NCBI GenBank assembly: GCA_903919125.1
Contig: CAIXGS010000019.1
Coordinates: 1 to 32,324, forward strand
Length of the DNA: 32,324 nt
Direction: 5' to 3'
Origin: an uncultured Spartobacteria bacterium
Lineage (GTDB): Bacteria > Verrucomicrobiota > Verrucomicrobiia > Chthoniobacterales > Chthoniobacteraceae
Positions within the stretch are counted from its first letter, which is position 1; the number at the start of each line of letters is the position of its first letter. The notes beneath the pieces were generated by a model that saw nothing but the letters and a program-made list of their open reading frames with translations, did no database searches and was not told where the DNA came from. Of this stretch, positions 2-30,840 are shown in pieces. The position numbers and the translations under genes are program-made.

Positions 2-796
2 AAACTGGAACCCAGTTCGTCCACAGTAAAAACTGCCAAAGACCTATATGCCGGCAGTTCTTGGTCGCCGGTTCGTGAGATTATAGATTCTGCAAGAGCG
101 AACGTGTGGATCGCATCTGCGGGGTACGGATTAATTACACCAGCGACCTCCATCCGCTCCTATTCGGCAACATTCACGCGAAACCATCCTGATTTTGTTG
201 GTGCAGATGATGTCAAGAACGGCGCTCAAAACTGGTGGTCCAAGTTGACCGCAAGGAACATCAAGCGTGAGCCAATCAGTTCCGTTTCTGAACTCGTCAG
301 ACAAAACCCTGACATCCCTCTCATTGCATCTTTGTCCGAGGACTATTGGGCAGCCTTGAAATCGGACTTCGAAGAGGCGGCGCGGATTGTCAGGTCGCCG
401 GAGAACATGGTCATTGTGGCCGCCGGCGTATCCGAAAAGGGTAATCTCGGAGGTCATTTTTTACCGTGCAGCGCAAGGTTGGAACGAGAACTGGGCAGGG
501 GACGCTCCGCCCTGAATGTGCGGACGCTCGCCCACATTTTAAAAAAATATCCGTATCTGGTCGGCAAACGTGAATTGTTTGAAACCTTCCAACAACTTTT
601 ATCTAGTTTGGATGACTATCCCTATCCCCAAAGGAGTCAAACCTCAGACGAACAGGTGGTAGAATTTATCCGACGAAGAAAGTTGGATTGCCCCAAGGTT
701 TCGCACTCAAGCCTTCTTCGTGAATTCAGAGCAGGAGGGAATGCGTGTGAACAGAGTCGTTTCAGAGAACTTTTCAAGCAAACTAATCCCATTTAA
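2..796 (+). CDS. dpdC: DpdC-like protein (YaaA/DUF328-like), 5' end cut by window
   Basis: The frame is open to the left window edge, so the gene starts outside the window and the GTG at 104 is only an internal codon. Visible residues include AKDLYAGSSW near the edge and then VWIASAGYGLI, the pattern of the YaaA (DUF328)/DUF6884 fold, where a 'DLY.G' motif precedes a strand ending in S..YGL. About 264 residues are visible. In the known Dpd pathway DpdC has a DUF328-type domain and converts DNA-inserted preQ0 to amido-7-deazaguanine. It lies 8 bp upstream of a DpdB gene and in the same operon as the transglycosylase, which supports this name. The C-terminal half (about residues 150-264) is not recognised. 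The alternative is a generic DUF6884/YaaA protein with another role. The family assignment is fair; the exact reaction is inferred from context. Confidence 0.62.
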   Translation, partial: KLEPSSSTVKTAKDLYAGSSWSPVREIIDSARANVWIASAGYGLITPATSIRSYSATFTRNHPDFVGADDVKNGAQNWWSKLTARNIKREPISSVSELVRQNPDIPLIASLSEDYWAALKSDFEEAARIVRSPENMVIVAAGVSEKGNLGGHFLPCSARLERELGRGRSALNVRTLAHILKKYPYLVGKRELFETFQQLLSSLDDYPYPQRSQTSDEQVVEFIRRRKLDCPKVSHSSLLREFRAGGNACEQSRFRELFKQTNPI

Positions 797-804
797 GTCC
801 GAGA

Positions 805-1944
805 ATGAAAAATCATATTTTAGAACGCAAGGCTCTCAGGGTTGATCAGAAGGGTGGCAAACACGTCTATCTCCTGAGCTTGAGTGGCGATGAGTTGCTT
901 GAAATTGCAGGAGTCTCACGAGTGACGCGCTCGGATGATGGAAAACTTATTGGATATCAACGGGCGGAGGTGAAGCGGCACGTTCGCGAAATCGCGGACT
1001 ATCTCGAGACCTCTGAGATGCTTCTGGCTCACCCAATTATTTTATCATTTGGCTCAAATGTCCGCTTTGTTTCGAGTCGTGGCCAAAAAACATCAGACGG
1101 GTTGGCGGTGGCCGGAATGCTCGAGATACCGCTCCCCAGCCCAGAGGGGATTAAACCAGCATGGATTGTCGACGGACAGCAGCGCGCTAGGGCGATCAGT
1201 TTGTGCAAGGACCGATCCTTCGCTGTACCCGTTTGCGCTTTTATCGCAGATGACGTGGAGATTCAGCGCGATCAATTTCTTCGCATTAATAACACGCGCC
1301 CCCTCCCAAGGGGACTAGTCACGGAATTGCTGCCTCAGGTTTCATCACCACTTCCTCCTCACCTGTCCGTTCGAAAGATTCCATCCACCCTCTGTGATCT
1401 TTTGAACTCCGAACCAACATCGCCCTTTTTGGGACTAATCAAAAGACCATCCCTTTCAACTGAGGGAAAGAAGTCCGCCGTCGTCACAGATACGGTGATT
1501 GTAAAAATGATAGAGGACAGTCTGACTAACCCATCGGGTTGCCTGTTCCCGTTTCGAAACTTTGCCACAGGTGAATACAATCATAGCGCAATTTGGGCAG
1601 TTCTCACCCTCTTCTGGACTGCGGTAAGGCAGACCTTTCCCCAAGCTTGGGGGAAATCGCCCTCTGAAAGCCGCTTGATGCATGGCGTGGGCATCCGTTC
1701 CATGGGTAAGTTGATGGATCGGGTGATGTCTGTCGTTGATGTTTCGCACAAGGACGCTCTAAAGCATGTCAAAGTTGAGATTTCGAAAATTGCGCCGTTT
1801 TGTCGGTGGACCTCCGGAGAGTGGGAAGCCATCGGAAATATCCGCTGGGACGAACTCCAGAACTTGCACAAGCACTTCGCCATGCTTTCCAATTTCCTCA
1901 TTAGAACGTATTTAGACGAACGCTCGAAACCTGCATCAGCATGA
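805..1944 (+). CDS. dpdB: DpdB-like DGQHR-domain protein, copy 1
   Basis: This 379-aa protein carries WIVDGQQRARAI (DGQQR at about 123-127), a variant of the DGQHR signature shared by DndB and DpdB proteins. It also has the family's NNTRPLPRGL segment further on. DpdB is required together with DpdA for placing preQ0 in DNA; in Salmonella the two are the minimal insertion machinery. It starts 8 bp after the preceding stop, and its TGA overlaps the ATG of dpdA (ATGA at 1941-1944), so the two are translationally coupled. A clear paralog lies at 3184-4308; the two align end to end, sharing IGYQR.EV, IVDGQQR, LP.GL..ELLP and a SRL.HG.GI..MG segment. Which copy works with DpdA cannot be told from sequence. 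DndB of phosphorothioation systems is the closest alternative name, but the neighbouring TGT-like gene favours DpdB. Confidence 0.82.
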   Translation: MKNHILERKALRVDQKGGKHVYLLSLSGDELLEIAGVSRVTRSDDGKLIGYQRAEVKRHVREIADYLETSEMLLAHPIILSFGSNVRFVSSRGQKTSDGLAVAGMLEIPLPSPEGIKPAWIVDGQQRARAISLCKDRSFAVPVCAFIADDVEIQRDQFLRINNTRPLPRGLVTELLPQVSSPLPPHLSVRKIPSTLCDLLNSEPTSPFLGLIKRPSLSTEGKKSAVVTDTVIVKMIEDSLTNPSGCLFPFRNFATGEYNHSAIWAVLTLFWTAVRQTFPQAWGKSPSESRLMHGVGIRSMGKLMDRVMSVVDVSHKDALKHVKVEISKIAPFCRWTSGEWEAIGNIRWDELQNLHKHFAMLSNFLIRTYLDERSKPASA

Positions 1945-3182
1945 AGTTCTTCTTCCCAGATGCACATGACCTTGTCGATCCTTCCTTTAATTTTGACACC
2001 GAACAAAGGCAGTTCAACGGCAGTCGGCAGTTAGCTCAGCTTTACGCGCACGAGCGACTCGACCGACCGCCATATGATGGAATGTTAATTTCCAAGGCGA
2101 TGGTGGATGGACGGGGCAAGAGCCTCAGGTACTCCTTCACGCAAGTCCAGAAACTGAAACGTTTAGGGGCGCGGGAATTCCTCCGCCTGGATCGCCCCCA
2201 TTTCACGCGCCGAATGGAGACGATGGGAGACTGCGGGTCTTTTTCCTATCTCACAGAGCCAACACCTCCCTTCAGTGTTGATGAAGTCATAGAATTCTAC
2301 CTAGATGCGCAGTTCGATTACGGCATCTCGCTGGACCATGTCATTCTTGGATACGACGAGAAGTCCAAAAGTATCTCGGAAGCACCTGAGGAGTGGAGAG
2401 GCCGGTTTGAAATAACACTTCAGTGCGCCAAAGAGTTTTTCTCTAAGTGCCAGACCAGAAAGGTGCCATTTTGTCCGGTCGGCGCCGCCCAAGGTTGGAG
2501 TCCACAATCGTACGCGGTTGCGGTGTCAGAATTACAAAAAATGGGTTACCACTACATCGCCCTGGGTGGAATGGTTCCTTTGAAAAGTCGGGAGATTCTG
2601 GCCTGCCTCGAGGCCGTCAATGAAGTTCGGAATCCTCGGACAAAGCTTCACCTGCTAGGCATCAACCGTTTGGAAGCTTTGGACGAGTTTGCGAGAATGG
2701 GCGTCCACAGTTTTGACAGCACGTCGGCGCTCAAAAAGGCGTTCATGGACGACAAGGATAACTACCACACCAAATCTCGGGCTTATACGGCGGTTCGTGT
2801 GCCCCAGGTGGGTGAGAACGCCGCATTGAAGAAGAAAATTCTTGCGGGAACCGTTGACCACGCGCGGGCCCGGTTTCTTGAAAAGACGTGCATGGATGGC
2901 CTGAAAGCTCTGGGCCAAAATAATATCGGACTGACAGAGGTGTTGGGGCGGCTTCGCGAATACGACATTCTCTGGCGGGATGGCAGAGATGAAACCGAGC
3001 GCTATCGGGAAACCTTGCAGGATGCTCCCTGGCGCAAATGCTCCTGTTCAATCTGCAGAGATCTCGGGGTCCATGTCGTCATATTCCGCGGCGCAGACCG
3101 CAACCGGTCCCGTGGATTCCACAATTTACATGTTCTCAGCGAAAATCTTAGAGAATGGACCGCGCGAAACCAACCAACCTAG
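1941..3182 (+). CDS. dpdA: DNA 7-deazaguanine transglycosylase DpdA (TGT-like)
   Basis: This 413-aa protein is related to tRNA-guanine transglycosylase and would exchange guanine in DNA for preQ0. The TGT landmarks are in order. GDCGSF (Asp97) matches the DSGGFQ base-binding Asp. SLDHVI (Asp132) matches the second base-recognition Asp. PVGAAQGW and GYHYIALGGM (about 179-211) match the GIVQGG/AIGGL segments. GVHSFDST (Asp259) corresponds to the nucleophile region GxDMFD. The C-terminal zinc site is C367-x-C369-x2-C372 with His394 in FHNL. All presumed catalytic and zinc residues are present, so it should be active. The ATG overlaps the dpdB stop by 4 bp, and the stop is followed after one base by the second dpdB gene. 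A genuine tRNA TGT is unlikely given the divergence and the context. Confidence 0.9.
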   Translation: MKFFFPDAHDLVDPSFNFDTEQRQFNGSRQLAQLYAHERLDRPPYDGMLISKAMVDGRGKSLRYSFTQVQKLKRLGAREFLRLDRPHFTRRMETMGDCGSFSYLTEPTPPFSVDEVIEFYLDAQFDYGISLDHVILGYDEKSKSISEAPEEWRGRFEITLQCAKEFFSKCQTRKVPFCPVGAAQGWSPQSYAVAVSELQKMGYHYIALGGMVPLKSREILACLEAVNEVRNPRTKLHLLGINRLEALDEFARMGVHSFDSTSALKKAFMDDKDNYHTKSRAYTAVRVPQVGENAALKKKILAGTVDHARARFLEKTCMDGLKALGQNNIGLTEVLGRLREYDILWRDGRDETERYRETLQDAPWRKCSCSICRDLGVHVVIFRGADRNRSRGFHNLHVLSENLREWTARNQPT

Positions 3183-3183
3183 T

Positions 3184-4308
3184 ATGAGTTCCACCAGAAT
3201 CCTCGAATTGCCCGCCATTGCCATCCAGCAGAGCGGTAAGCACAAACTTTTCACATTTGCGATCGACGGCAAACAACTCCACACAATCGCCCAGGTTTCC
3301 CGACTCGGGCGCGGAGATAATGAGAAAATCATTGGCTACCAAAGGCCTGAGGTAATTTCGCATATCACCCAAATCCGTAATTATCTAGAATCCGCAGATG
3401 CGATGCTCCCCAATGCGATAGTCGTCGCATTCGAACCATCCGTAGAATTCCGACCACTAGAAGCCAATGATCGGGGGACTACACGGCACGGTCACCTCGT
3501 GGTGCCCCTAAAAGCTGACGGAAATTGTCCGGGATGGATTGTTGACGGTCAACAGAGGGCGGCGGCGATACGCGACGCATCGGTCGAGCAATTTCCCGTA
3601 TTTGTGACAGCATTTGTCACCGACAACGTGGAGGAACAACGCGAGCAGTTCATTCTGGTGAACTCCACAAAACCACTTCCGAAGGGACTCATCTACGAAT
3701 TGCTGCCCTCAACGGACATGGCTCTCTCAACCAATCTGCAGAAGAAGCGTTTTCCTGCATATCTTTTGGAGAGATTAAATTTTGATTCGCGCTCTCCGTT
3801 GCTTCGGTCCATCCAAACACCGACTACCCCCCAAGGATTCATCAAGGATAACTCCATCCTGAAAATGTTGGAGAACAGCCTGAACGATGGGGCCCTGTGT
3901 CGGTTCATTTCCGCGAGTCGCGGAGAGGACCAGACCGACGACATCCTTACCCTGCTATTCAACTTCTGGAACGCAGTCGCCACCGTATTCCCCGATGCAT
4001 GGAAACTTCCTCCAACGAAGTCACGCCTCACCCATGGGGCTGGCATCCAAACAATGGGGCACCTGATGGACGCTATTTGTGACCGGTTTCGTAACCAAGG
4101 CATCCCGACAACCGCCCAATTTGAAGCCGACCTCCGCCCCCTTGAGCCCATATGCTCGTGGTCGAACGGTTACTGGAACTTCGGCCCAAACATGCAGCGT
4201 AAATGGAACGAAATCCAGAATACCTCTGGAGACATACGGCTAGTCGCGAGCCACTTGCTAGTTCAATACAAGCGGCTAGTTTGGTCGGCAGGCGATACTC
4301 GAAACTGA
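3184..4308 (+). CDS. DpdB-like DGQHR-domain protein, copy 2
   Basis: A 374-aa paralog of the protein at 805-1944, with WIVDGQQRAAAI (DGQQR at about 121-125), NSTKPLPKGLIYELLP and SRLTHGAGIQTMGHLMD. The frame extends upstream to 2980 inside dpdA, but the ATG at 3184, one base after the dpdA TAG, aligns with the start of copy 1 and is preferred. It is the last gene of the plus-strand operon and faces dpdD across 74 bp. The duplication could give a heteromeric DpdB partner for DpdA, or one copy could act as a DndB-like DNA-binding regulator. No residues distinguish these options. The family call is firm; the separate role of this copy is unknown. Confidence 0.8.
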   Translation: MSSTRILELPAIAIQQSGKHKLFTFAIDGKQLHTIAQVSRLGRGDNEKIIGYQRPEVISHITQIRNYLESADAMLPNAIVVAFEPSVEFRPLEANDRGTTRHGHLVVPLKADGNCPGWIVDGQQRAAAIRDASVEQFPVFVTAFVTDNVEEQREQFILVNSTKPLPKGLIYELLPSTDMALSTNLQKKRFPAYLLERLNFDSRSPLLRSIQTPTTPQGFIKDNSILKMLENSLNDGALCRFISASRGEDQTDDILTLLFNFWNAVATVFPDAWKLPPTKSRLTHGAGIQTMGHLMDAICDRFRNQGIPTTAQFEADLRPLEPICSWSNGYWNFGPNMQRKWNEIQNTSGDIRLVASHLLVQYKRLVWSAGDTRN

Positions 4309-4382: not shown

Positions 4383-6194
4383 TTAATGGTTGGTACACCA
4401 ACGCTCCAGCGAGCGCACGATGCTGCCTGCTCCAGTACCTTGAACATAACAAAAACGCCTCTTGTCGTAACTATCGAATGCTCGAAACACAGCATGGGTA
4501 GATGCCAACCAAACAAACATGACAACATCTGCCGTCAGGGCTAATTGGGTCTCATAACCAGACTCTGTAGCAGTCACCACAGTAACTCTAATGCGACTAC
4601 GCTGTTGGATCTCTTCGGCTGCCTGCTTTGCCTGCTTCTCACGAAGACAAACAATGGCGACGTGCTGCAACCCGGATTCTGCTAGTGGATCGACTGTATC
4701 GTGCTCCTGAGCCTGGTAGGGCAGGTAACCGAAAATGGTCGGTTGATCAAAACCGAGTCTTAGCCCCACTCGCCGCCATACCTCGCAATCAGCGGGAGGC
4801 AGCGTCTCCGCGGCGCGCTTTAGTACGTCGGCAGCATCAAGCCAAAGGTTTTCCGCATGTCGCAAGTCCGCCAGTTCGCGCTCCATGAGTTCGATGGCGT
4901 CGAGCGCGAAGTAAAGTTGGCTGAGGGCTGGTTTCGCCTTCCACCAGTTGCCAAGCGTTTGACACACGTCTGCCACATCTGCGTTGAGTTGGAGCAAGGC
5001 GCTGGCTAGTTCCAGCAAGACATGGCCATGTTCCCGACCGGCAGAGTTGCCCCCATGCAGCAGGCACCAAAGCTGGAGTAAGGAGAGGTATAAATTGGAA
5101 AACTCGGACCGAGGAAAACCCGACTCACGGACATATCGCTCCAAAATCTCTCCAACGGCAGGTAAAATCAGTCTGCGTTCGCGCGAACGGAGAGCATCAT
5201 CGATTATCAGCTCATCGATACATTTACACAGGGACTCAACCTGGTCTGCCGAGATATCGAATCCACTTAATTGACGCTCCTCACTGAGAAAAGCCTTGGC
5301 AACCGCTTCGTTGCCATCCCTGAGCGCCCCGAACCAATCAGCCCACGTGGCGATTGTTTGAAGAGATGGCGCCTCAGTATCATCTAACGTGCTCGAAGGC
5401 GACAAGGATGGTTCGGGCGGGAGCAGAGAAATTGGTGTATCCGGAACTGGCGGGGACAGTACCCCACAGGCTTCATCAATCCAGGAACGGATGCGCGCAG
5501 GCAGAGGTTGAGCCAGTAAGTGGGGTAATTCTGGATGGTCGCGTATCCGGTCGAGTTCGCCAAAGCGATACCACATCCTAATGCGCATAAACTGCGTATT
5601 GACAGCAGTTTCAAGCTGAAAGAGGTCGAGTTGACTAATGATGTCTTCCGCGCCACTGCGATCACCCACAAGGAGCGCTGAAGCAAAGCGCGCCCTCAAC
5701 TCGTACAGTGAAGGCCGAGGCGGTTGGACTCGTGCAGGGCGCGCATTCTCCATGCGGCGGAGCAATTGAAGTTTCCCCAAGACGCGATCAAAATTTTGCC
5801 GAGGGCAACGCCATCGATAATAACCATCCGGAGATGCTCGTATAATGTTTTCGGAGAGCGCCCCCTGCGCGGAAGTTACCCCGATAAACCCGTCACCTTC
5901 GCGTAAAGTTGCTCCTCCAAAACTGGGAAGCACCCAAACGCCAAGAGCAGTCACAGCGAGGCGGAGCGACTCCGCATCCGGCGCGGTCGTGCACCACACG
6001 ACGTCTACCGTAGTTCGGAAAAACGGCAAGGAGGCCGCGCGCCCACTGCAAAGGGCGAAGAGTTCACCATGCATAGGGTGATCTTGGTCCACTTCGACTT
6101 CTGTGCCTGTCAGAGATACCCTCAGATTGGGACAATGCCCGGTCCAATTTTGGGCGAAGGCAGAAATGAGCGGTGCAAAATTGCCTGCGTTCAT
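4383..6194 (-). CDS. dpdD: DpdD-like protein of the Dpd cluster
   Basis: This 603-aa protein is the last gene of the minus-strand operon. An upstream in-frame codon would extend it to 6233, but the ATG at 6194 overlaps the dpdK stop as ATGA, like other junctions here, and is preferred. No catalytic motif is obvious in the first 500 residues, which are largely helical. The last 110 residues look like a small Rossmann-like domain: a strand HVAIVCLRE, then VTVVTA, then ADVVMFVW, then a conserved-looking HAVFRAF and a terminal GTGAGSIVRSL. This resembles the DUF2325 pattern, in which a nucleotide or ligand could be bound. The name is by elimination: every other minus-strand Dpd component is accounted for, and an unclassified protein of about 600 aa is left. 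Function is unknown. Confidence 0.6.
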   Translation of the reverse strand: MNAGNFAPLISAFAQNWTGHCPNLRVSLTGTEVEVDQDHPMHGELFALCSGRAASLPFFRTTVDVVWCTTAPDAESLRLAVTALGVWVLPSFGGATLREGDGFIGVTSAQGALSENIIRASPDGYYRWRCPRQNFDRVLGKLQLLRRMENARPARVQPPRPSLYELRARFASALLVGDRSGAEDIISQLDLFQLETAVNTQFMRIRMWYRFGELDRIRDHPELPHLLAQPLPARIRSWIDEACGVLSPPVPDTPISLLPPEPSLSPSSTLDDTEAPSLQTIATWADWFGALRDGNEAVAKAFLSEERQLSGFDISADQVESLCKCIDELIIDDALRSRERRLILPAVGEILERYVRESGFPRSEFSNLYLSLLQLWCLLHGGNSAGREHGHVLLELASALLQLNADVADVCQTLGNWWKAKPALSQLYFALDAIELMERELADLRHAENLWLDAADVLKRAAETLPPADCEVWRRVGLRLGFDQPTIFGYLPYQAQEHDTVDPLAESGLQHVAIVCLREKQAKQAAEEIQQRSRIRVTVVTATESGYETQLALTADVVMFVWLASTHAVFRAFDSYDKRRFCYVQGTGAGSIVRSLERWCTNH

Positions 6195-6757
6195 GGGGTA
6201 CGGGGAGCCTCCGAATCGGCCAATTTTTCCCAAAGGCGATTAAACTCCAGCATGGCAGCAGCAATTTTTTTATTCCCAGTGTCCGTTTCCGGAGTGTGCG
6301 CGGTAATCTTCTCGTCGCGGCGATAGACACCGCTGTACGTAAAGTTCATCGATCCCTCCAGGTAGAAGGCGGAGCAGAGCAGACCCTTTTCATGATAGAG
6401 CGCGGAGGCGTAGCGCCCTGTTATCTTGGGAGATTGTTCACGGACAGTTACTCGCAAAAAGGCATCAGCGTAATCACCGGGGACACTAATAATTCGAACC
6501 GGTATTCTGCATGAGAGTTCCATAAGCGCTTGGCTGAAAAGGATGCTACCTTGCTCCCCGAACTCCGAATGCGCGCGGAAGAGCGGTTGAAATTGTCCGA
6601 AAGAGTTATCAAACACTGGGAAATCCGTCAGGTAAGGCGAGCACACATAGAGTGGTCCTGCGTCGGGCTTCACCAAAAGGCGGGATGACAAAAGAGATGC
6701 AAGTAGATCGCGGACTTGCAGACTCCCGGCACGAGACCAAATATCGCGACTAGCCAT
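6191..6757 (-). CDS. dpdK: DpdK, phospholipase D-like protein
   Basis: This 188-aa protein has one PLD-type half-site: YHEKGLL (His122, Lys124) followed by EGSMNFTYSG (GSxN at about 135-138). The classical motif HxKx4Dx6GSxxN has Ser at position 129 in place of Asp. With a single site, a dimer would be needed to build an active centre, as in Nuc-type nucleases. It overlaps dpdJ by 8 bp upstream and dpdD by 4 bp downstream. In Dpd clusters DpdK is the PLD-fold member and a candidate nuclease or phosphodiesterase for restricting unmodified DNA. The missing Asp leaves catalytic competence open, although His and Lys are kept. The family assignment is good; the nuclease role is inferred. Confidence 0.78.
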   Translation of the reverse strand: MASRDIWSRAGSLQVRDLLASLLSSRLLVKPDAGPLYVCSPYLTDFPVFDNSFGQFQPLFRAHSEFGEQGSILFSQALMELSCRIPVRIISVPGDYADAFLRVTVREQSPKITGRYASALYHEKGLLCSAFYLEGSMNFTYSGVYRRDEKITAHTPETDTGNKKIAAAMLEFNRLWEKLADSEAPRTP

Positions 6758-9700
6758 TCACAAAATCAGGGATGTGCAGCACAACCGCAACACGGTTGGC
6801 GCTCTGTTCAACGCGTGCAACTGAAACTGACACCTGAAGCGACTCCAGTTCCAGTTCGGCAACGGTCAGTTGTGGCAAGCCTTGAGCGAGTTCGGTTCGC
6901 TGGCTTAATGAAGCAACCAAACGAACTCTTCCGGATTCACGCAGCGCCTGACGGGCCTTATCCAGCCAGCCTTCAGGATCTGCGTCGAGGAAGACCTCAT
7001 GAATTTCAATGCCGAGCCAACCGCGGGCGAGCGCTCGAGAAGGAAGCCCAAGATCATAGTAGCGCCCACGCTGGTGTAAGCATTCCGGACAACCATCGGG
7101 ACAAGATTCAAACAAGAGTTGCTGGAGTTGTGCAAACAACTGCGACGGGGAAGGAGGTTCGCCGCCGATGTGTTCAAAATGCCTGCGAAGAATCGGCCCA
7201 ATCTTGGCATGCTGAGCATATGTGTAGGCGAAGGTTCGCCCCGGAACTGATATGCCCAAACGCGTAGACCGGCGGAACCAAGCGCGATTAATACGATGTG
7301 TTAAGCGGTCACTCGCGCCGTCACTGCCGGGGCGCAGTAGTTTGTTGACCACTGAGGCTACAACAGATCGAGTTGCGGAAAATCCCTGCGATTGCAAAGC
7401 CGAGCGCAATCGTTCGGAAGCCTCTTGAAGCGCGGCAAATCCAGCGGCCATGCGCACCTCAACAAAGGCCTCTTGCACTGGAGAATTGACATTGCAGGCA
7501 TCGCGGACAACTGCCAGCAAGTTGGCCGCAGTCTGCTCTCGTCCGCAGAAATGAAGAGCGAACTCTAAACCATCCAAAAAGCGGCGCGGTTGGCGCTGCA
7601 TCTCACGCACGATGGTTTCAATTTGTCCAACACCACCTGAGGATGTTTCGGTGATTGAAAGGTCAAATCCCCCTTCAGGTCGGGGCAGAACGTCCAGCGC
7701 GAGATCTTCCTCGCTGACCTGTGGCGCGAGACTCACCATCGCTGACCGCAACGCCTGCCCAAGAGTGACGGCATATCGCTGGCGGACCCAGACAGAAAAA
7801 GATTCTTCCGGAGGGTACCAAAGTACGGCTTCCAACTCAGCAATGGTATCGCGAATTGCGGGGACATCCCAAGCGGCAACCAATGTCTCCCTAAGTTTTG
7901 CTTCTTCCTCGGCGCCATTAACGCTGATACCGCGCATCTGGAAAATCACATCCAGAACACGTGCAGCGGCTTGGGGCCTGACACCCATCAGATGTTCCTG
8001 CGCCTTCGCAAGATCGCACTTTTTTGACATTGCCGTCGCTGAGAGCATGGCAAGTGACATATCGCTCAACCACTCCGCCTGAAAAGAGTTCACCAACCCC
8101 GACATTACCAGAGACTTTGAGACACGGAACTTGAAGTAATCACTGCGAAAGCGATCAGAGACCGCGTCAGCCAAAGGCGGACGACTATTCAAATGGTCTG
8201 CACTCAAAACAAAGTGAACACCGTCGGCCCGCAGTTTGAAGCCAACAGCCTGTCGTTCTGGATTGTTACTTTCGGCCATTCTTTGCAAACGCAGGTTGCC
8301 GGAAACTGCCTGCTTGTTGCGCCGCATCTCGAACAGACTTTCTTCGGAATACCGAACGATCTCAACCCACGCCGAACTTGAATGTAGATATGCACAAGCA
8401 TCGCTGAATGCATGAGACCAAGGAGTGATAAGTCGGACAGGAAGCAATTCGCCCTCGCCTTCAACACGAATCAAAGTCTGCCATATCCAATGTGCGTTGC
8501 TGGCATCACTCACATCTCTGGGCCGGTGCGTTATGTAAGCGGCATCGGGTTGAAAGATCGAAACACCCTCAACCTCCTGGAGGAAAGTATGCCTTGGAAA
8601 CAACTCGTCGATCGAAGGCGCATTTGAGCCAGCTTGCAATTTTGCCGAAAACTCAATCCAGTAACCCGGTTCATCTTGTTTCGTAGCAAAACGTTTTGAT
8701 ACCCGACCTGGGCACGTCTCAAACAGGAATCTTGAGACCTCCATACTCTCGGACTGCCGCTCAAACCTCTGGTAAGGCTCTAATTCAACGATTGCCTCGC
8801 CCACCTCCAACTCACCAAAAGTTGCCTTTGGAATAAACTGCGGTAGCGGCCTGCGAGCTCCTTTGTCCTCTACCGCTGCCGGCGTCGGCGGATAAGAGTA
8901 AGCCCAATTTGCTTCAAGTTTTCTTAGAAGCGTGGGCACAACCTGCATTAATAACGGCCGTGGTTCGTGCCAGAGCAGACTGGTCAAGAGGGCTTTGGCT
9001 GAGTCCTCCCCAAGACCGCTGGAGAAGCAAAAAAACTGCTGTAAATCGCGCTCGAACTGGTTCCAATCGTGCCCCTGCTCCAAAAGCCTGCGAAGCAAAT
9101 CGGAGGCTTTATCTGGCGCCGCACAATCGTTAAAGAAATTCAAAGGTCCCTGCAGGTAACGAAAGGCAGAAATATTTCCCCCGATGGACCGCCCAATCCA
9201 ATCAATCAGGAAGTGAGACACCTGCACACGGAGCACATACGGATTTAGGGTCGGCAGGACGAGGGAATCAACTTCCGGGTGAAAGAGTTGCTCGGCGGAG
9301 TGAAATGCCCAGCGATCAGCTCCGTAATCGGAAAGCACCACGACGGTCCATGGACGAGCCCCCCGAGTGCGCCCAGCGCGTCCTTTTCGCTGTATGAAAG
9401 ATGACATCGAGGAAGGGCGCTTATGATGGAGCATTGCCCCTACATCGGCGTCGTCAAAGCCCACCTCGAGCGAACTTGTGGCTATGATCAGGTCTGAATT
9501 CGCATCAGCGCCGGGGTCCTGTGAACTGCAGCGGGTCACTGTGAGAGGGCTACCGAGATTATGGCCGATGAGCTTAGATAACTCCCAGACCTGCCCTTCA
9601 GCGAAGCGCCGTCTTCGAATTAAATCAGGGACATCCTGCGGCGGCGGTTGGCGCACAGATGCAAGTCGTTTAGATTCGGCGTCAGACAGATCGTTGAACC

Positions 9701-11303
9701 AGCGATTGACAGAATCTAGATTGTCACTGAAACCGAAGACTTTTTTGCGATAAAATTCTTCTGGTCTGAGAGTCGAGTCGACGTCGTCCCCTTGAATGCG
9801 CGGCGTGAGTAAGCGCGCGAGTAGCATGCCAGCCTGAATAGATGTACTGAGAAGCGACGCGCCTGCGGCGGGGTCGCCCTTTACGGCAAGACTGTACTCA
9901 CCTCCCTCCGCCTCCATTTCTCCATCACTACCCAAACCATGGTGCGGTCGAAACTCCTCAACATTGCCTGGGGCCAAACTCGCAACTCGCGCCAGATGTT
10001 GCGATGCGTCTCTCAGCGTTGCGGACAACCCGACAACGTGTAGAGACTTCAGTCGCGCCCAGTACCGCCAGCGGCGTAGAACCCATGCGACTTGGGCACC
10101 CGTCAGCCCTTCGTGAGCGTGAACCTCATCAAGCAAAAGTAATCGAGGCGCCTGTTCGCGAGGGCGCCGCATCCCAAAGGCCCGGTCCCATTGAGGATTA
10201 CACATCTCCCGATTGAGCATCTCTAAGGAGATGAATAGGACATCAGGGGGATTACGTTGGATTTCTTCTCGCGTGATCGCGAGGACACCATCGGGTACGT
10301 CAGGGTTGGTCGCCCCTTTTCGATACAGACTGGTACGATGATTCTTGCGGTCTGTGGCGCGCCAGACCAACTCGCTGCGACCTCCGTCGACAGGAGATTT
10401 TAAATACGGGATAACCGCGTCGGTTCCTCGACGGTCCCAGTGGTAGGGCTTCGGATTCTGATCCTCGAACCACTGGGCGTAGGGAGTGCCGCCGAGCAAC
10501 GCTCCGAAGCGGATCGGTCGAAGGCCATTCGCGACCAGAACCGGACGCAATTTCTCGGCTTCCGATATGGCTTCTCGAAGTTGGTCAGCAAGGAGCACAT
10601 TGCGCGGGTAGATGGCAATGATCTTGGTGAAAGATTCGCCGCGTAGGCTCGCCGCGATACTCAGGAACGCGGGAACGTAAAAAGCTTTGGTCTTTCCGGA
10701 ACCCGTGCCCGCACAAACGACGGAACCGTGAAATCCAGAATCTCCATAACTCTTAAGAATGCGTTCAAAAGCTCTGACCTGAAAGCCTGAGAAGCTGAAA
10801 TGCCCCCCCTCTTTTCTGGCTGCGAGAGCAAAGAAGCATTGACGCATTAGTTCCCCATGAGGTGAGGGACAAACCGACTGAATGCGCTCCCATACAGATT
10901 CTGCGCTTTGGTCACGGCGAGGATAGAGGCGGGGGGAAACCTTTAGTTTTATGTCAGATACTAAGCGTGGACCCGTAGCCCAGTCATCAACCCGGAACAT
11001 TTGGCGGAGATTGGCCAGGAGGCGCACGCCTTCGGCAAAACGAGTGCGATACGAATTCTCAGAATCTGGGACCTGATAGATGAGATTGCGCTGCCGCATC
11101 TGCAGCAGGAACGACCTTATGGTGTGTCCTTGGTTGGCAAGGTCTATCCAACGCGCTTGGAGTTCATCTGGGGCCTCGGAGGAAAACGCCTCTTCGATTT
11201 CAGGAACAGTCCAACGAACATTGTGGAATCCCCAAGAGAGAAGGCGCTCCTCCCGTTTCTCGAGAAAGGTCAGGAACTCTCCGGCGAAGGACTGAACACT
11301 CAT
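6750..11303 (-). CDS. dpdJ: DpdJ, very large DEVH-box helicase
   Basis: This 1517-aa superfamily 2 helicase-like protein has motif I AGTGSGKT (about 198-205), motif II LLDEVH (about 391-395), motif III GLSATL (about 426-430), a motif V-like ATSSLEVGFDD (about 609-618) and motif VI QRKGRAGR (about 638-645). A long C-terminal half follows, with a Cys cluster CPDGCPECLHQRG near the end, like the DUF1998-type metal-binding tail of MrfA/DISARM-type helicases. The ATG at 11303 follows the dpdI stop by 2 bp. It belongs to the presumed restriction half of Dpd and would translocate on DNA using ATP. All ATPase motifs are intact. The name rests on family type plus cluster position. Confidence 0.82.
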   Translation of the reverse strand: MSVQSFAGEFLTFLEKREERLLSWGFHNVRWTVPEIEEAFSSEAPDELQARWIDLANQGHTIRSFLLQMRQRNLIYQVPDSENSYRTRFAEGVRLLANLRQMFRVDDWATGPRLVSDIKLKVSPRLYPRRDQSAESVWERIQSVCPSPHGELMRQCFFALAARKEGGHFSFSGFQVRAFERILKSYGDSGFHGSVVCAGTGSGKTKAFYVPAFLSIAASLRGESFTKIIAIYPRNVLLADQLREAISEAEKLRPVLVANGLRPIRFGALLGGTPYAQWFEDQNPKPYHWDRRGTDAVIPYLKSPVDGGRSELVWRATDRKNHRTSLYRKGATNPDVPDGVLAITREEIQRNPPDVLFISLEMLNREMCNPQWDRAFGMRRPREQAPRLLLLDEVHAHEGLTGAQVAWVLRRWRYWARLKSLHVVGLSATLRDASQHLARVASLAPGNVEEFRPHHGLGSDGEMEAEGGEYSLAVKGDPAAGASLLSTSIQAGMLLARLLTPRIQGDDVDSTLRPEEFYRKKVFGFSDNLDSVNRWFNDLSDAESKRLASVRQPPPQDVPDLIRRRRFAEGQVWELSKLIGHNLGSPLTVTRCSSQDPGADANSDLIIATSSLEVGFDDADVGAMLHHKRPSSMSSFIQRKGRAGRTRGARPWTVVVLSDYGADRWAFHSAEQLFHPEVDSLVLPTLNPYVLRVQVSHFLIDWIGRSIGGNISAFRYLQGPLNFFNDCAAPDKASDLLRRLLEQGHDWNQFERDLQQFFCFSSGLGEDSAKALLTSLLWHEPRPLLMQVVPTLLRKLEANWAYSYPPTPAAVEDKGARRPLPQFIPKATFGELEVGEAIVELEPYQRFERQSESMEVSRFLFETCPGRVSKRFATKQDEPGYWIEFSAKLQAGSNAPSIDELFPRHTFLQEVEGVSIFQPDAAYITHRPRDVSDASNAHWIWQTLIRVEGEGELLPVRLITPWSHAFSDACAYLHSSSAWVEIVRYSEESLFEMRRNKQAVSGNLRLQRMAESNNPERQAVGFKLRADGVHFVLSADHLNSRPPLADAVSDRFRSDYFKFRVSKSLVMSGLVNSFQAEWLSDMSLAMLSATAMSKKCDLAKAQEHLMGVRPQAAARVLDVIFQMRGISVNGAEEEAKLRETLVAAWDVPAIRDTIAELEAVLWYPPEESFSVWVRQRYAVTLGQALRSAMVSLAPQVSEEDLALDVLPRPEGGFDLSITETSSGGVGQIETIVREMQRQPRRFLDGLEFALHFCGREQTAANLLAVVRDACNVNSPVQEAFVEVRMAAGFAALQEASERLRSALQSQGFSATRSVVASVVNKLLRPGSDGASDRLTHRINRAWFRRSTRLGISVPGRTFAYTYAQHAKIGPILRRHFEHIGGEPPSPSQLFAQLQQLLFESCPDGCPECLHQRGRYYDLGLPSRALARGWLGIEIHEVFLDADPEGWLDKARQALRESGRVRLVASLSQRTELAQGLPQLTVAELELESLQVSVSVARVEQSANRVAVVLHIPDFVNG

Positions 11304-11305
11304 GG

Positions 11306-12016
11306 CTACGAGGACAACCGGACGCGAAATGAGTTTTGTAAGTTCAAGGATTTAATCTGCCCTGCCACATCTGGATGCTGCGCGTCGCTAAAAGATGCTC
11401 CATGCGCAGAGGCAGCAGCCTGCAGGAATTTGCCAAAAGGAGTGTCAAGGCGTAGTTGAGATACAGCCTCAGTTAATTGCTCCAAGTTTTCTACAACCAC
11501 TTCAACATCCTCGGATTTACTCGGTAACTTATCAGCATAAGAGCGCAGTCGGCCGACAGATGTTTTCAAGCGATCACTTTGCGCTCGAACAACGGGTATG
11601 TCTTGACCGATGGCACAGACGACTCCTGAAAGGGCCTCCCATTTCTCTATTTTGCTCTGAAGGGATGATCGCCAGCCTGATTTAGTTCTCTTCAGAGCCT
11701 CTTTCGCGCGCTCAGAAAGATTAGTAAAGCTCTCTTCAGTTCCTGACTCACTGATTGCGTCAGCATCCCTCCGAAGTTTTTCGGCTAATCTTTTTGCTAT
11801 ACGAGCGGAACTTTTTATCGACTTGTTCCCGACATCATACTCGAGCGATGGCAACGAGGATGAGGCGAATGAAATCGTCGTTGACGCTTCTGACAGATGG
11901 AGGTTTGCAGCTTCCGCCAGCGCATGAAATCGACTAAAAAGCCCAGCCTGCTTGAGGCTTTTTCGAAACTCAGGTAGGGCAACGAGTCTTTCTTTGAGGT
12001 TGGTCAAGGGTTTCAT
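11306..12016 (-). CDS. dpdI: DpdI-like small helical protein
   Basis: This 236-aa protein is rich in Lys, Glu, Ser and Leu. It has extended helical, coiled-coil-prone stretches (about residues 70-150 and 165-195) and no recognisable enzymatic motif, signal peptide or membrane segment. Its ATG overlaps the dpdH stop by 4 bp (ATGA) and its TAG ends 2 bp before dpdJ, so it is co-translated with the ATPase and the helicase. A bridging or scaffold role between DpdH and DpdJ would fit, but this is only inference from position. The name dpdI is by position and size within the cluster. Confidence 0.55.
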   Translation of the reverse strand: MKPLTNLKERLVALPEFRKSLKQAGLFSRFHALAEAANLHLSEASTTISFASSSLPSLEYDVGNKSIKSSARIAKRLAEKLRRDADAISESGTEESFTNLSERAKEALKRTKSGWRSSLQSKIEKWEALSGVVCAIGQDIPVVRAQSDRLKTSVGRLRSYADKLPSKSEDVEVVVENLEQLTEAVSQLRLDTPFGKFLQAAASAHGASFSDAQHPDVAGQIKSLNLQNSFRVRLSS

Positions 12017-15000
12017 TCAGAATCAGATTCGACTTGCTCTCCAGGCTCAAGATGAGATGCCATTTTATCTAGGACGGCTAGCAATTGAGTTCGAGTATCT
12101 CCCCGCGGGCCTCCCATGGTTTCAATTTCCTGCAATTGTCCATCTACGCGATTAAGGTGGCGTTCGATGACGCGCAGCGATTCAACGCATTGCCTTAGTT
12201 TTTTTGGATTGAAAACCGCCACCTCCAAAAGAGACGTTGCATCAAAAACGGCTTGAGCGTTTTCCAGAGCTACCCCCCACGACGCGCGGATGTCAGATGT
12301 CTGAATGTGCTTCTTCTGCCACAGATCCTCAAATTCTGGGTTTGGGATCGGCAATATCCCGGGCCTACGGTGGGCGCCGTGTTGAAGTTCAATCACCTCG
12401 ACCGCATCAGTTAGGCAGGCCTCGATATTTTCACGCGGACTGCCTCCGACGAAACCAGCGTCGTTCATAAATTTTCTAGTTGTTTCCAGATGGACGCCGA
12501 TCGCCTGCTTTTCCCTCTTTAGTCTTTCAGGAATGGACTCAAATGCGCCCATGCAAAAGGGATGAATTGCCTTAAAACGCGGGTTCCAGTGACCTTGCTT
12601 TGCTGAATCTGGCGGTGGTTCGAAACAGAAGCGCTGTTCGAAGTCGTTCAACAACTCGAGAAGCGGAACCGGATTGATGAAATCTTTTGGATCTGCATCC
12701 CCCTGACCCGCACCGACTTCTTGAATCACAAAACTTCTTAGAGTCGCGTGTTTTTGTTCAAGATCTTCAACGATGTCCCCCAGTTCAGAGGAAACAGTCA
12801 CGGGGCGCTCGGTACCAGGCCAGACTGCCTCCAGCAGCGATTGAATTCGCTCGGCACGGTTATCAGAGAACCGCTTCCGATCGCGAAGCATTGCGGTCAG
12901 AGCAAGCGCTTGAACGGCACTCCTGAGGCACTGCTCCACGACCTGCGGTTCAGTCGGTTGAATGCTGTTTACGACCAAACTGCGATGTTTGCGGAGCCAC
13001 CGGGAAACAGAACGCTTGTGAATCTCAGCGTCACTGAAATTCCAAGTTTTGGAAGGACTGCGATCGAACAAGAGTAGACTTTGTATTAAGCCTCGTGTTT
13101 CGGTATTACGTGGGAAATGGAAATTTAGCAGGCCTGTTGGTTTTGCCACTTGTCCTTCAATTTTTGGTACTGTACTGCCGCCAATCAGATGCTTTTTCTC
13201 GGCGATTGGAGTGCCCAGAAAATCCTCCCATTTAATGCAATCCTTAAGAAATTTTCCAAGCAAGCCCCTGAATTTGCTGTCTTCTTGCAATTGCTGACTG
13301 TTGTGCTCCCACTTGTCTAGATGTCCTAACAATCTGTCCAGTTCAGCATCGACTTTCGGTTTGGGGGTACCGAGCGTTGCTGAAGTCTGAGACTTTGGAG
13401 AAGCGTTAACGCTGTTGAGGGGTTGCGAAACAGGGCTTCCTGAAAATGACGGGAGGCCGAGCGGTGCCAGAAAAGGCTGTAAAGCAGTTGCCATCTCATC
13501 TGCGTTGTTTGCCGCAACCCAGAATGACGCCAGGAAGCGGAGGCGCTGACGACGCTCTTCGTCCCAAGCAGCGCCGCTGGAAAATCGATTCACAAATCCA
13601 GACCAAATTGGGGGAGTGGGAATTTCGACTTGAAAAACCTGTGCGCGAGGAAAGCGCTGCGCCTCAAGGCTATCGAAGGACTGCTCTAGAGCCTTGAGTA
13701 TAACATGATCTAAAAGGCCTCGCTGCGAACGATAACGAGCGTCCGTCAATTTATTAAGAAGCGCATGCGGCGCGTTCTCCGAAAATGGGAACATGCCAAC
13801 TTCAACCCCACCCTCAAAAGTGACTTTCCCAAAGACAGAGTGGCATTCTGGTTTGCAAGGACAATCCTGACAGCGACTGTGACTCACATCACCTTTGAAT
13901 CGACTCTCCGCGATGGCTTCGAGTTCGTCATCGGTCGACCGAACAGCGTTCAAATAACGAGCGGTAAATTTGGCAACATCCTCACGACTGGAGGCCCACT
14001 TTTGGGCGCCCTCCCCACCGACCTCGTACACTTGCGTGGCACGCTGCCGCTGACTGTCTGGAAGGCGCTGCCAACCATTCTCTGTTATGCCGAGAACGGC
14101 AACCATCGGGCAGAGGCCTTCTTCTTCGTCACGAGGCTCAAATGCATTTACGACGTCCTGATCCAGTCCGGTCACGGATACATCTTCGATAAATACGGCC
14201 AGCGACTCCTTTGACCCAAGTTGCCGACGGATTTCGGTAAAAATACGAAGCAGGTCATTGCCCTTGATTCCCGTCGTAGCGCGTATCGCGTCGCGCAATG
14301 CGATGTTCAGGACCTCCACCGCTTTTTCTCGCGTATCATCCTCCTCACTAAGATCTTCAACGAAATTGTAAACCTCAGCTGAAACTGTCTGCCTCGAAAA
14401 CGCACCTGGGGACACGCGTAATTCCTCGGTAGTGAAGGCAGGGTAGTGCTCCCGTTCATCTACGGAACTGGGGTCCGTGAGTCGCTTGATGATTTGATCA
14501 ATAACACCACCCTCTCGCTTCATTAACCCGCCAAAGCCTTCTGAGCGGAGAGCCTGCCCTAGATGCCTAAGTGAACGATCCAAGGGTTGGCGTCCGTGTT
14601 CGTTGACCCAGCGCGAGTCGACCTCAAGCGCAAGTTCGGCAAGGAGTGTTGCACGGGCGGTCTGCGCGGATAAACGGTCAATCGCCCCCTGAACGAGGCT
14701 CATGTGCCGCTCAAATTCATTGCCCAACTGGCGTACAATTTGCCCCAAAGCGTCCTTAAGACTACCATTGCCACGGGTCACAAGAACAATGCGGGGCTTG
14801 GCTGCGGAAGTAGATTCCTTATTCCATCTGTAGTCGGAACGCTCTTTAAGCCAACGGATGAGATGGGATTTGCCAGTTCCCGGTTCGCCTTTCACAAAGG
14901 CCTGCACCGATCGATTGGGCCGAGAAAAAATCGCGGTGAACACCTCCTCTTCGGTCAAGGTAACCCCGGTCGATTTTCCGTCGGTGATTCTGCTAAAAGG

Positions 15001-15120
15001 CGAGTGCGCCGCAAGGAAACTGGCAGCTGAACTGGAACTGGTCTGCGCAGTTAGTGAGATGACTTTCGGGACCTGATCCAAAGTCCAACATGGCTTACCT
15101 ACAGATTCTGGGTGTGGCAT
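12013..15120 (-). CDS. dpdH: DpdH, large P-loop ATPase
   Basis: This 1035-aa protein has Walker A GEPGTGKSHL (about 78-87) and a likely Walker B SLAVFIEDVS (about 306-315). A small Cys cluster CQDCPCKPECH (about 417-427) may bind zinc. The rest is large and helical without known motifs. The frame is open to a TTG at 15153, but the ATG at 15120 has AAAGGA five bases upstream and lies one base after the dpdG stop, so it is preferred. This is the STAND/AAA-like ATPase expected as DpdH in Dpd clusters, probably driving DNA recognition or signalling in restriction. It sits between dpdG and dpdI with overlapping or near-overlapping ends, which suggests a fixed stoichiometry. Confidence 0.78.
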   Translation of the reverse strand: MPHPESVGKPCWTLDQVPKVISLTAQTSSSSAASFLAAHSPFSRITDGKSTGVTLTEEEVFTAIFSRPNRSVQAFVKGEPGTGKSHLIRWLKERSDYRWNKESTSAAKPRIVLVTRGNGSLKDALGQIVRQLGNEFERHMSLVQGAIDRLSAQTARATLLAELALEVDSRWVNEHGRQPLDRSLRHLGQALRSEGFGGLMKREGGVIDQIIKRLTDPSSVDEREHYPAFTTEELRVSPGAFSRQTVSAEVYNFVEDLSEEDDTREKAVEVLNIALRDAIRATTGIKGNDLLRIFTEIRRQLGSKESLAVFIEDVSVTGLDQDVVNAFEPRDEEEGLCPMVAVLGITENGWQRLPDSQRQRATQVYEVGGEGAQKWASSREDVAKFTARYLNAVRSTDDELEAIAESRFKGDVSHSRCQDCPCKPECHSVFGKVTFEGGVEVGMFPFSENAPHALLNKLTDARYRSQRGLLDHVILKALEQSFDSLEAQRFPRAQVFQVEIPTPPIWSGFVNRFSSGAAWDEERRQRLRFLASFWVAANNADEMATALQPFLAPLGLPSFSGSPVSQPLNSVNASPKSQTSATLGTPKPKVDAELDRLLGHLDKWEHNSQQLQEDSKFRGLLGKFLKDCIKWEDFLGTPIAEKKHLIGGSTVPKIEGQVAKPTGLLNFHFPRNTETRGLIQSLLLFDRSPSKTWNFSDAEIHKRSVSRWLRKHRSLVVNSIQPTEPQVVEQCLRSAVQALALTAMLRDRKRFSDNRAERIQSLLEAVWPGTERPVTVSSELGDIVEDLEQKHATLRSFVIQEVGAGQGDADPKDFINPVPLLELLNDFEQRFCFEPPPDSAKQGHWNPRFKAIHPFCMGAFESIPERLKREKQAIGVHLETTRKFMNDAGFVGGSPRENIEACLTDAVEVIELQHGAHRRPGILPIPNPEFEDLWQKKHIQTSDIRASWGVALENAQAVFDATSLLEVAVFNPKKLRQCVESLRVIERHLNRVDGQLQEIETMGGPRGDTRTQLLAVLDKMASHLEPGEQVESDSE

Positions 15121-15121
15121 A

Positions 15122-16015
15122 TCAGTCCTTTGAGGGGAATTCGACGGCGACAAAGCGGGCGCTCGAGAAGTCCTCGTTACGCGGCGGTTCAGCCTCGCCT
15201 ATGTTCCAACCATCGCTGTCCGCTGGGCACGAAAGGCGGATAACTCCATCCAAATGAAGCTCGGTCAGAGCGTGGCTGAGGCCCAATGTGCAGTGTTTTC
15301 CAGAGCCATCCCATTTCCGGTTCGCCTGACGAAACAGTTCACCTCCATCGAGTTCGGGACAAGCCGCGGCCAATTGTTCCATGAACACATTGGCCTCTAA
15401 CTTTTTCTGGCGATCGAAAATCCTCGGGAGAGCACGTTGCAGACGCTCATAGGGATTGGGCTGAAACTCACTATTGGGATCATACCATCCGAGACCAACA
15501 AAGTTGAGCCACCTCCGCAGACCGGTGAGTTTATCGCCATTAAAAGGGTTGGCCTGTTTCTCATTTTCAAATACGGCTTCGTTAAAGGCGGCAGCCCATT
15601 GATCGTTGTTGTACGATCGAAAGTCGTGTGCCCTTTTACCCAAGCCAAGGATGTAGGCATAAAATAGCGCGAAATACTTCTCCACCTCGACGTTCGAGAG
15701 AACCACGGAGTCAAATGCATGCAGGATCGCTCCTCGCGAGTTGAATGACTGGCGGTACTGCTGGGAGAGTGTAAGCGTTCCCTCACGGTCGACCGCAAGT
15801 CCGAGCGCTGTCGCAGCCTGCACGGTTACCAATGCGGGATTTCCATCTCCAGTGGAAGGATTTAGAGGCCTAGGTTGCAGAAGTTTATATACATCTTCGC
15901 GAACCAACCCGCGTGGACAATAGGCTAGTAGTTCAACCAGTATCTGCAGGCGGACAGGGGTTACCGGATTGTGGGTAAACATGGAAGTGAAGTATTGGGA
16001 GGCTCTGGCAGCCAT
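15122..16015 (-). CDS. dpdG: DpdG-like protein of the Dpd cluster
   Basis: This is about 297 aa from the ATG at 16015. A TTG at 16033 and an ATG at 15982 are alternative starts, and none has a clearly spaced ribosome-binding site (a GGAGG lies only one base before 16015). All three overlap the end of dpdF, whose stop is at 15961. The N-terminal 80 residues (VRLQILVELLAYCPRGLVRE, then a later hydrophobic turn) look like a winged-helix DNA-binding domain; the remainder is not recognised. It lies between RecQ-like DpdF and ATPase DpdH, where Dpd clusters carry DpdG. A DNA-binding or adaptor role is inferred only. Confidence 0.62.
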   Translation of the reverse strand: MAARASQYFTSMFTHNPVTPVRLQILVELLAYCPRGLVREDVYKLLQPRPLNPSTGDGNPALVTVQAATALGLAVDREGTLTLSQQYRQSFNSRGAILHAFDSVVLSNVEVEKYFALFYAYILGLGKRAHDFRSYNNDQWAAAFNEAVFENEKQANPFNGDKLTGLRRWLNFVGLGWYDPNSEFQPNPYERLQRALPRIFDRQKKLEANVFMEQLAAACPELDGGELFRQANRKWDGSGKHCTLGLSHALTELHLDGVIRLSCPADSDGWNIGEAEPPRNEDFSSARFVAVEFPSKD

Positions 16016-21400: not shown

Positions 21401-21638
21401 CAATAACTGCGGCAAATATGCTTTTAATCCGACAGTCAATGTACTTTTCGGCCTCTTTAAGTTTACAAACGGTGTTAAGCGGTAGAAGCGCTCGTCTTAA
21501 ACTGGGTCTTCCACCAACTGTTCTAGCGAGTTCCTTCGGTTCGTTAACCGAAACAAAAAAAACAATAAACCGTCCCCCTTGATCGTTGAAGATCTTACCA
21601 ATACCGAAGCCGCTGTGCTTCACAATGAAACCAATCAT
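18399..21638 (-). CDS. dpdE: DpdE, SNF2-like helicase/translocase
   Basis: This 1079-aa SNF2-family protein has an N-terminal small beta domain (about 1-110, starting MIGFIVKHSGFGIGKIF), of the kind seen at the start of RapA/SNF2-like proteins. It is followed by ADEVGLGKTIEAG (about 181-193), VVDETHH (about 275-281), LLSAIP (about 304-309) and the C-terminal lobe motif EQRIGRLDRLG. A conserved GGEGRNFQ segment precedes motif VI. All ATPase motifs are intact. It is the first gene of the eight-gene minus-strand operon, 147 bp downstream of queD. DpdE is the SNF2-like member of Dpd clusters and probably moves along double-stranded DNA. The ATG at 21638 has no obvious Shine-Dalgarno sequence. Confidence 0.85.
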   Translation of the reverse strand: MIGFIVKHSGFGIGKIFNDQGGRFIVFFVSVNEPKELARTVGGRPSLRRALLPLNTVCKLKEAEKYIDCRIKSIFAAVIANEPHRYQIEFDDGISREVSEVDLVPVELPPVTCPLVALAELQLEGYGTFQKRESLLTAWGASARGALGLRALLSSRIDLRPHQAYVAGTVLMDRIPRYLLADEVGLGKTIEAGIVIHDILEQKPDANILILCPGTLTQQWLCELYSKFSGKVFSLLELHLEAAAYGKIPRKVIVSFTDALLFASRIKESEWDLVVVDETHHVIEFPELYDLTQSLSRNARGCLLLSAIPVQRREEEYLRLLALLEPHRYNIDSADVQANFKQLYDRQIELGRKLRYISRRLGEFADEEQSADRIIEKISELCSFPVLAQDEQLLSLAESLDPTDPTKFIGDVHALLHYIGDRYRISRRILRNRRSQLFDVEPDLRIDRKMCRLGHDPDQFELDASSAVRTFLQSLQACGVEDRVLLPLTRHLFHSLCDPGCFAEFVSVFNSNSEEETNLLEFGGQIGYQNWSEYASGLLGAVRERWEDEALLALQRAAENWSQKADNSARIATLISFLRKQHRKTPSKKFIIFAGFFGLGEKLAQYLSETFGAAGIAQFTWNMETKAKEKAAMRFKRDPQCWLMVSDETGGEGRNFQFVDELIHFDLPWSVSKIEQRIGRLDRLGRKTSSVCSNVLFSIGEEEDGWLRCLESGFQIFTRSISGLEFALTALEAKISKTAISGGYEDLNALVDDIKERAELERSEDDAQGVLDEASLDRVSAEVFRRAQSTPDRDIALEEAFCDWFSFVCGPGALGFPPTGDLPDKCILDFRPNQIPAGSIRLTATQDGVQPDRVGTFRRQIAQERPDLEFFSVGNEFFDAVCASLNHSTKGRTYAVECHVDHSPWRGFEFSYRPFGDYGLLTRHPGHRKHLDRVLAVRTEHCFVGEDLQLASTALELLSLRRSLTNETKNKVWQNFTLNNGRTQVLSDHYANSGWEALVNRAEAKARIEAKKLFAISLAPSIEAECARIAEQIRQAEAARAHGWEEEIEGLETLQKAIHGWDLELDACGFLSVKGGLIP

Positions 21639-22241: not shown

Positions 22242-22245
22242 GGGA

Positions 22246-22941: not shown

Positions 22942-22943
22942 AC

Positions 22944-23633: not shown

Positions 23634-23739
23634 GAGACTCACGCTAACATGGAACTCGGTTGAATATCCAAGAGACTCAGAAGTTATCTGTGTTTGTACC
23701 AGTGAACCGAATTTTCCCACGGCTTTACCTCTTCCGGCC

Positions 23740-25296: not shown

Positions 25297-25303
25297 GGAG
25301 TGT

Positions 25304-30822: not shown

Positions 30823-30840
30823 GATCAAAAATCTTCCTAC

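What the first reader, a model, noticed from the sequence alone, without database searches (positions are those of the whole stretch)
805..4308. Two paralogous DpdB proteins flanking DpdA
Known Dpd clusters, to my knowledge, use one DpdB with DpdA. Here two DGQQR proteins of 379 and 374 aa sit on either side of dpdA, both full length with intact motifs. They may form a heteromer, recognise different sequence contexts, or split into modification and regulatory roles as DndB does in phosphorothioation.
Basis: partly seen in the sequence, partly recalled or inferred. Interest (0 to 1): 0.68.

Follow-up and report, generated by a model that had tools for sequence, protein, structure and literature searches.

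The report
Paired DpdB genes flanking dpdA
The window holds a normal bacterial DNA-marking (Dpd) defence island whose base-swapping enzyme gene lies between two related helper-ATPase genes; this two-helper layout is widespread among bacteria rather than unusual, but the two helpers are old, separate subfamilies, and what the second one does has not been tested as far as I could find.

Summary
In detail: dpdB1 (805-1944), dpdA (1941-3182) and dpdB2 (3184-4308) follow dpdC in a dpd island with dpdD, K, J, H, G, F, E and queD, E, C. Both B proteins pass NCBI's DpdB model and fall far below the DndB model's cut-off. The interpretation that double DpdB is unusual is wrong. Of 80 genomic dpdA loci nearest to this one, 66 have C-B1-A-B2 and 13 have C-A-B2 only; nine alphaproteobacterial plasmid records also carry pairs. 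A 2025 survey already reports dpdB as the dpd gene with most extra copies (n=801). What I add: the copies are two ancient lineages. Every B upstream of dpdA is B1 (one clade, 100/100 support), every downstream one is B2; single-B islands, the E. coli type included, keep B2, never B1. Neither lineage groups with DndB. Both keep an invariant DGQQR motif and a predicted ParB/Srx fold. Most likely B2 is the canonical DpdB that drives DpdA, and B1 is a co-translated accessory ATPase, perhaps a heteromer partner; that role is inferred. Verdict: new member of a known kind, modest interest.

The parts
2..796 (+). dpdC, 3' part; the frame is open to the contig edge, true start missing
   Evidence: PADLOC DpdC 7.7e-45 on 104-793; frame open from base 2
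805..1944 (+). dpdB1, 379 aa, accessory DpdB lineage
   Evidence: NF041060 403.9 bits, cut-off 300; B1 clade 100/100; AlphaFold pLDDT 90.3
1168..1185 (+). VDGQQR motif of B1 (residues V122-R127)
   Evidence: sequence; D123-R127 invariant in the aligned B1 set
1941..3182 (+). dpdA, 413 aa, DNA-directed TGT-like transglycosylase; start overlaps dpdB1 stop by 4 nt
   Evidence: NF041059 541 bits; PADLOC DpdA 2.1e-163
3184..4308 (+). dpdB2, 374 aa, core DpdB lineage
   Evidence: NF041060 478.4 bits; groups with downstream and single-copy DpdBs; AlphaFold pLDDT 91.6
3541..3558 (+). VDGQQR motif of B2 (residues V120-R125)
   Evidence: sequence; invariant in the aligned B2 set
4383..6233 (-). dpdD
   Evidence: PADLOC 2.5e-80; NF041061 188.8 bits, below its cut-off of 300
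6191..6757 (-). dpdK
   Evidence: PADLOC 2.6e-38
6750..11303 (-). dpdJ (helicase)
   Evidence: PADLOC 1261 bits
11306..12016 (-). 236-aa protein between dpdJ and dpdH, no confident family
   Evidence: only sub-cut-off Pfam matches
12013..15153 (-). dpdH
   Evidence: PADLOC 1.7e-135
15122..16033 (-). dpdG
   Evidence: PADLOC 1.7e-6, weak
15961..18438 (-). dpdF
   Evidence: PADLOC 4.5e-141
18399..21638 (-). dpdE
   Evidence: PADLOC 5.4e-182
21786..23849 (-). queD, queE, queC: preQ0 supply
   Evidence: Pfam PTPS, Radical_SAM, QueC; NCBIfam QueD and QueE matches below cut-offs

Best explanation
This is a Dpd DNA modification-restriction island of the two-DpdB type. DpdA exchanges guanine in DNA for preQ0 (supplied by QueD/E/C), with DpdB as an ATPase partner; DpdC converts preQ0 to ADG; DpdD-K attack unmodified DNA. 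DpdB2 (downstream of dpdA) is the core DpdB, the only one kept in single-B islands. DpdB1 (upstream, start/stop-coupled to dpdA) is an ancient accessory paralogue with an intact motif and fold, most likely a second ParB-like subunit of the same DpdA complex that alters assembly or DNA-site choice. Shown here: gene identities, order, lineage split, motif conservation, predicted fold. Reported elsewhere: DpdA/B/C chemistry. Inferred: that B1 joins the complex and what it changes.
For: Family assignments. B1 clade 100/100 and in all 200 checked bootstrap trees, DndB outside. Every complete pair has B1 upstream and B2 downstream; no complete island with B1 alone. Single-B loci fall with B2 and those genomes hold no second above-cut-off DpdB, apart from one genome with a second, paired island. 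The commonest B1/A junction, 49 of 65 counted, is an overlap of exactly 4 nt. DGQQR invariant in B1 and B2. Mean pairwise identity 55% for B1, 53% for B2, 54% for DpdA over 75 loci, so similar constraint. Both AlphaFold models match ParB/Noc nucleotide-binding domains, Z 9.2 (B1) and 8.6 (B2). DpdB as ParB-like ATPase and DpdC chemistry: PMC12839542.
Against: No interaction, ATPase or modification data for B1. DpdA distances follow B2 (0.87) more closely than B1 (0.79; partial 0.65 against 0.37), so B1 may be more loosely tied to DpdA. B1 is lost or gained repeatedly between close relatives (L083 against L104), so it is dispensable in some settings.
Confidence: 0.6

Rival explanations
1. B1 is a regulator: it represses the dpd operon, as DndB is reported to do in phosphorothioation (from memory), and takes no part in base exchange.
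For: Shared DGQHR/DndB superfamily (Pfam PF14072); B1 is dispensable in many islands; ParB-like proteins such as KorB repress transcription (KorB is among the fold matches).
Against: B1 does not group with DndB, passes the DpdB model and fails DndB; it sits inside the synthesis operon, overlapping the dpdA start, and keeps the same motif as B2.
Confidence: 0.17
2. The two DpdBs act separately with DpdA: each forms its own DpdA-DpdB complex and directs preQ0 to different DNA sequence contexts.
For: Both lineages are intact, similarly constrained, and differ at lineage-specific conserved sites such as G93, P279, G283 and R367 in B1 and F83, K167 and G218 in B2; orphan DpdBs exist without dpdA.
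Against: B1 never occurs without B2 in complete islands, which separate complexes would not require.
Confidence: 0.18
3. B1 is a redundant relic of a duplication with no distinct role.
For: Repeated absence in close relatives.
Against: Ancient split, invariant motif, conserved position and overlap across many phyla, constraint equal to B2 and DpdA.
Confidence: 0.05

Closest known systems
Dpd islands with two dpdB genes (e.g. Sinorhizobium americanum CCGM7 plasmid B, Caulobacter sp. S6 plasmid, Agrobacterium vitis CG957 plasmid, Myxococcus sp. RHSTA-1-4)
   Same: dpdC-dpdB1-dpdA-dpdB2 order; both copies annotated DpdB in the annotated plasmid records
   Different: The window's nearest relatives are Verrucomicrobiota (L038) and it carries a nearly full dpdD-K set; the alphaproteobacterial plasmids carry queE-queD-queC directly after dpdB2
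Dpd island of the enterobacterial type (E. coli, Enterobacter; S. Montevideo from memory)
   Same: dpdC, dpdA, dpdB2 order and restriction genes dpdD, dpdK, dpdJ
   Different: No dpdB1; one DpdB of B2 lineage
DndB of DNA phosphorothioation
   Same: Pfam PF14072 superfamily, DGQHR-type domain
   Different: Outside the DpdB clade; window proteins miss TIGR03233 (tree)
DNA phosphorothioation-associated DGQHR protein 1 (TIGR04172)
   Same: DGQHR domain
   Different: Window proteins score 58.9 and 62.2 bits against a cut-off of 450

Membership tests
DpdB (NF041060) | Whole-protein score over curated cut-off 300 bits | tested here: met
   B1 403.9, B2 478.4
DpdB (NF041060) | Adjacent to dpdA and dpdC in a dpd island | tested here: met
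DpdB (NF041060) | ParB/Srx-like fold with DGQxR motif | tested here: met
   Motif invariant; predicted fold matches ParB/Noc, Z 9.2 and 8.6, about 95 residues aligned; a middling Z, so supporting and not proof
DpdB (NF041060) | ATPase activity required for preQ0 insertion | not testable with these tools
   Reported for DpdB in PMC12839542; not known for B1
DndB (TIGR03233) | Score over 328 bits and grouping with DndB | tested here: not met
   B2 23.2 bits, B1 no match; tree places DndB outside
Dpd modification-restriction island | dpdA with dpdB, dpdC and restriction genes dpdD-K, plus preQ0 genes | tested here: met
   All but dpdI matched; dpdG weakly; a gene without a family match sits between dpdJ and dpdH
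Dpd modification-restriction island | dPreQ0 or dADG in DNA | not testable with these tools
   needs mass spectrometry

The most novel reading that the evidence does not exclude
DpdB1 and DpdB2 form an obligate heteromeric ParB-like ATPase with DpdA, defining a two-B class of Dpd system in which B1 sets the sequence or topological context of base exchange, unlike the single-B class of enterobacteria.
Probability: 0.35. Interest if true: 0.55.

Novelty: new member of a known kind. Interest (0 to 1): 0.3.

Why it matters
The experimental picture of Dpd comes, to my knowledge, mainly from a single-DpdB island. In my sample, drawn towards this window's DpdA, the commoner layout has a second, ancient DpdB lineage that is always upstream of dpdA. 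A clear B1/B2 split would let annotation tools name the two apart and tells bench workers which gene to leave out to test how DpdB drives base exchange.

Tried and rejected
Recent tandem duplication: rejected, 36% identity and old lineage split. One copy a DndB regulator by descent: rejected by score and tree. B2 as one strict clade: not settled; the free tree needs two changes, but the AU test does not reject one clade (p 0.33), so B1 may have arisen from within a B2 grade. Rooting uses long-branch outgroups and the bootstrap had not fully settled. Sequence search for solved structures of B1 or B2: no relative found. Foldseek alone gave no E under 0.001 for B2, with ParB and Noc chains among the best rows. 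The 2023 Dpd biochemistry paper is not held, so its content is from memory. No Salmonella Montevideo sequence was examined. Unbiased prevalence is poorly sampled: in random draws of 398 Pseudomonadota and 296 Actinomycetota genomes, beyond the centre genomes, 2 pairs and 1 single appeared.

Full report
Observation. The window is contig 19, bases 1-32324, of a 4.34-Mb assembly in 87 contigs. At its left end lie dpdC (open to the contig edge), dpdB1 805-1944, dpdA 1941-3182 and dpdB2 3184-4308, all on the plus strand. On the minus strand follow dpdD, dpdK, dpdJ, a 236-aa gene without a family, dpdH, dpdG, dpdF, dpdE, then queD, queE and queC. Both B proteins pass NCBI's DpdB equivalog model (403.9 and 478.4 bits against 300) and do not meet the DndB model. 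The two are 36% identical.

How common it is. Plasmid records already show the same C-B-A-B order with both copies annotated DpdB, for example in Caulobacter sp. S6, Sinorhizobium americanum, Bradyrhizobium sp. 41S5, Skermanella rosea, Methylobacterium sp. XJLW and Agrobacterium vitis; in all nine plasmid records have two full-length places. A scan of one genome per species with a DpdA alignment confirmed 307 relatives and kept the best 80. Of these, 66 have B1-A-B2, 13 have only B2 after dpdA (in one of them, L062, B2 is interrupted), and one (L105) is cut by a contig end; these counts are my reading of the table. The sample leans towards DpdAs like the window's. [quoted passage not shown] the text does not say which set the 801 refer to. 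The single-B picture fits the enterobacterial island: 161 of 5,426 E. coli genomes match, one place each.

Two lineages. In every complete pair the upstream copy scores higher with window B1 and the downstream copy with window B2, across Actinomycetota, Myxococcota, Planctomycetota, Pseudomonadota, Cyanobacteriota, Verrucomicrobiota and others (one label error at L063 comes from an over-long open frame; L038 and L066 were listed as single only because B2 fell outside my length filter or off the contig). In a careful IQ-TREE of 71 proteins B1 is one clade, 100/100, and DndB and other DGQHR proteins lie outside. Single-B and orphan DpdBs fall with B2. Whether B2 is itself one clade is open (AU p 0.33). 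Genomes with single-B islands hold no second above-cut-off DpdB, except one genome (G442) that has a second, paired island.

Anatomy and fold. The commonest dpdB1/dpdA junction, 49 of 65 counted, is an overlap of exactly 4 nt, as in the window. VDGQQR is present in every B1 and B2 examined, and 39 positions are conserved over 95% in both lineages; each lineage has its own further conserved positions. AlphaFold models are confident (pLDDT 90.3 and 91.6). VIA-align places ParB and Noc nucleotide-binding domains on top for both, Z 9.2 and 8.6 over about 95 residues, followed by sulfiredoxin. Those Z values are middling; the agreement of many ParB/Srx entries is the stronger sign. B1, B2 and DpdA are about equally conserved over 75 loci, and DpdA distances follow B2 more than B1.

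Mechanism. From PMC12839542, DpdA is a TGT homologue, DpdB a ParB-like ATPase needed for preQ0 insertion, DpdC makes ADG; from memory, the 2023 biochemistry was done with the Salmonella Montevideo proteins. B2 fits the core role, because it is the copy that remains when there is only one. B1 is inferred to be an accessory subunit because it overlaps the dpdA start, keeps the motif and fold, and does not occur without B2. Regulation, separate complexes and redundancy are weighed as rivals.

Novelty. The window is an ordinary two-DpdB Dpd island. The lineage split is a useful refinement that I did not find stated in the papers I could search, but that library lacks most subscription journals.

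Noticed in passing
window 11306-12016 (-): 236-aa protein without a confident family between dpdJ and dpdH; ORFs of similar size lie at the same place in L181/L182 (about 13123-13908) and in G324 (L028+L029, 29856-30662), with similar C-terminal ends by eye. Possibly a fast-changing dpdI or a new dpd gene.
   Followed up: partly
window 24184-28922 (-): A divergent MetK-like protein (171 bits against a cut-off of 309), a VWA protein and a MoxR-like AAA ATPase follow queC; they were not found in the dpd loci of the nearest relatives.
   Followed up: partly
window 29698-30828 (-): Fic-domain protein close to PADLOC SoFic (7.3e-43), beside the dpd island.
   Followed up: no
L102 3796-4983 and L108 3740-4858: In two B1-less Acidimicrobiia islands a third, distant DGQHR protein lies just upstream of dpdC; it forms its own clade with genes in L086 and L045. 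It might stand in for B1.
   Followed up: partly
L161 5004-6149, L160 4992-6089, L162 5001-6107: Orphan DpdBs on plasmids without dpdA nearby: Euzebya beside MoxR, VWA and cytosine methyltransferase genes, Variovorax beside type I-E cas genes and a DUF6884 gene, Nonomuraea alone.
   Followed up: partly
L062 7352-8527 (also L171): dpdB2 of Nannocystis pusilla is interrupted: two pieces in different frames, one stop inside.
   Followed up: no
L031, L034, L035, L036: Cyanobacterial and Paenibacillus plasmid islands have a longer dpdA (about 690-715 aa) without a DpdB of this family found nearby; two have a DGQHR or DndB-annotated gene instead.
   Followed up: no
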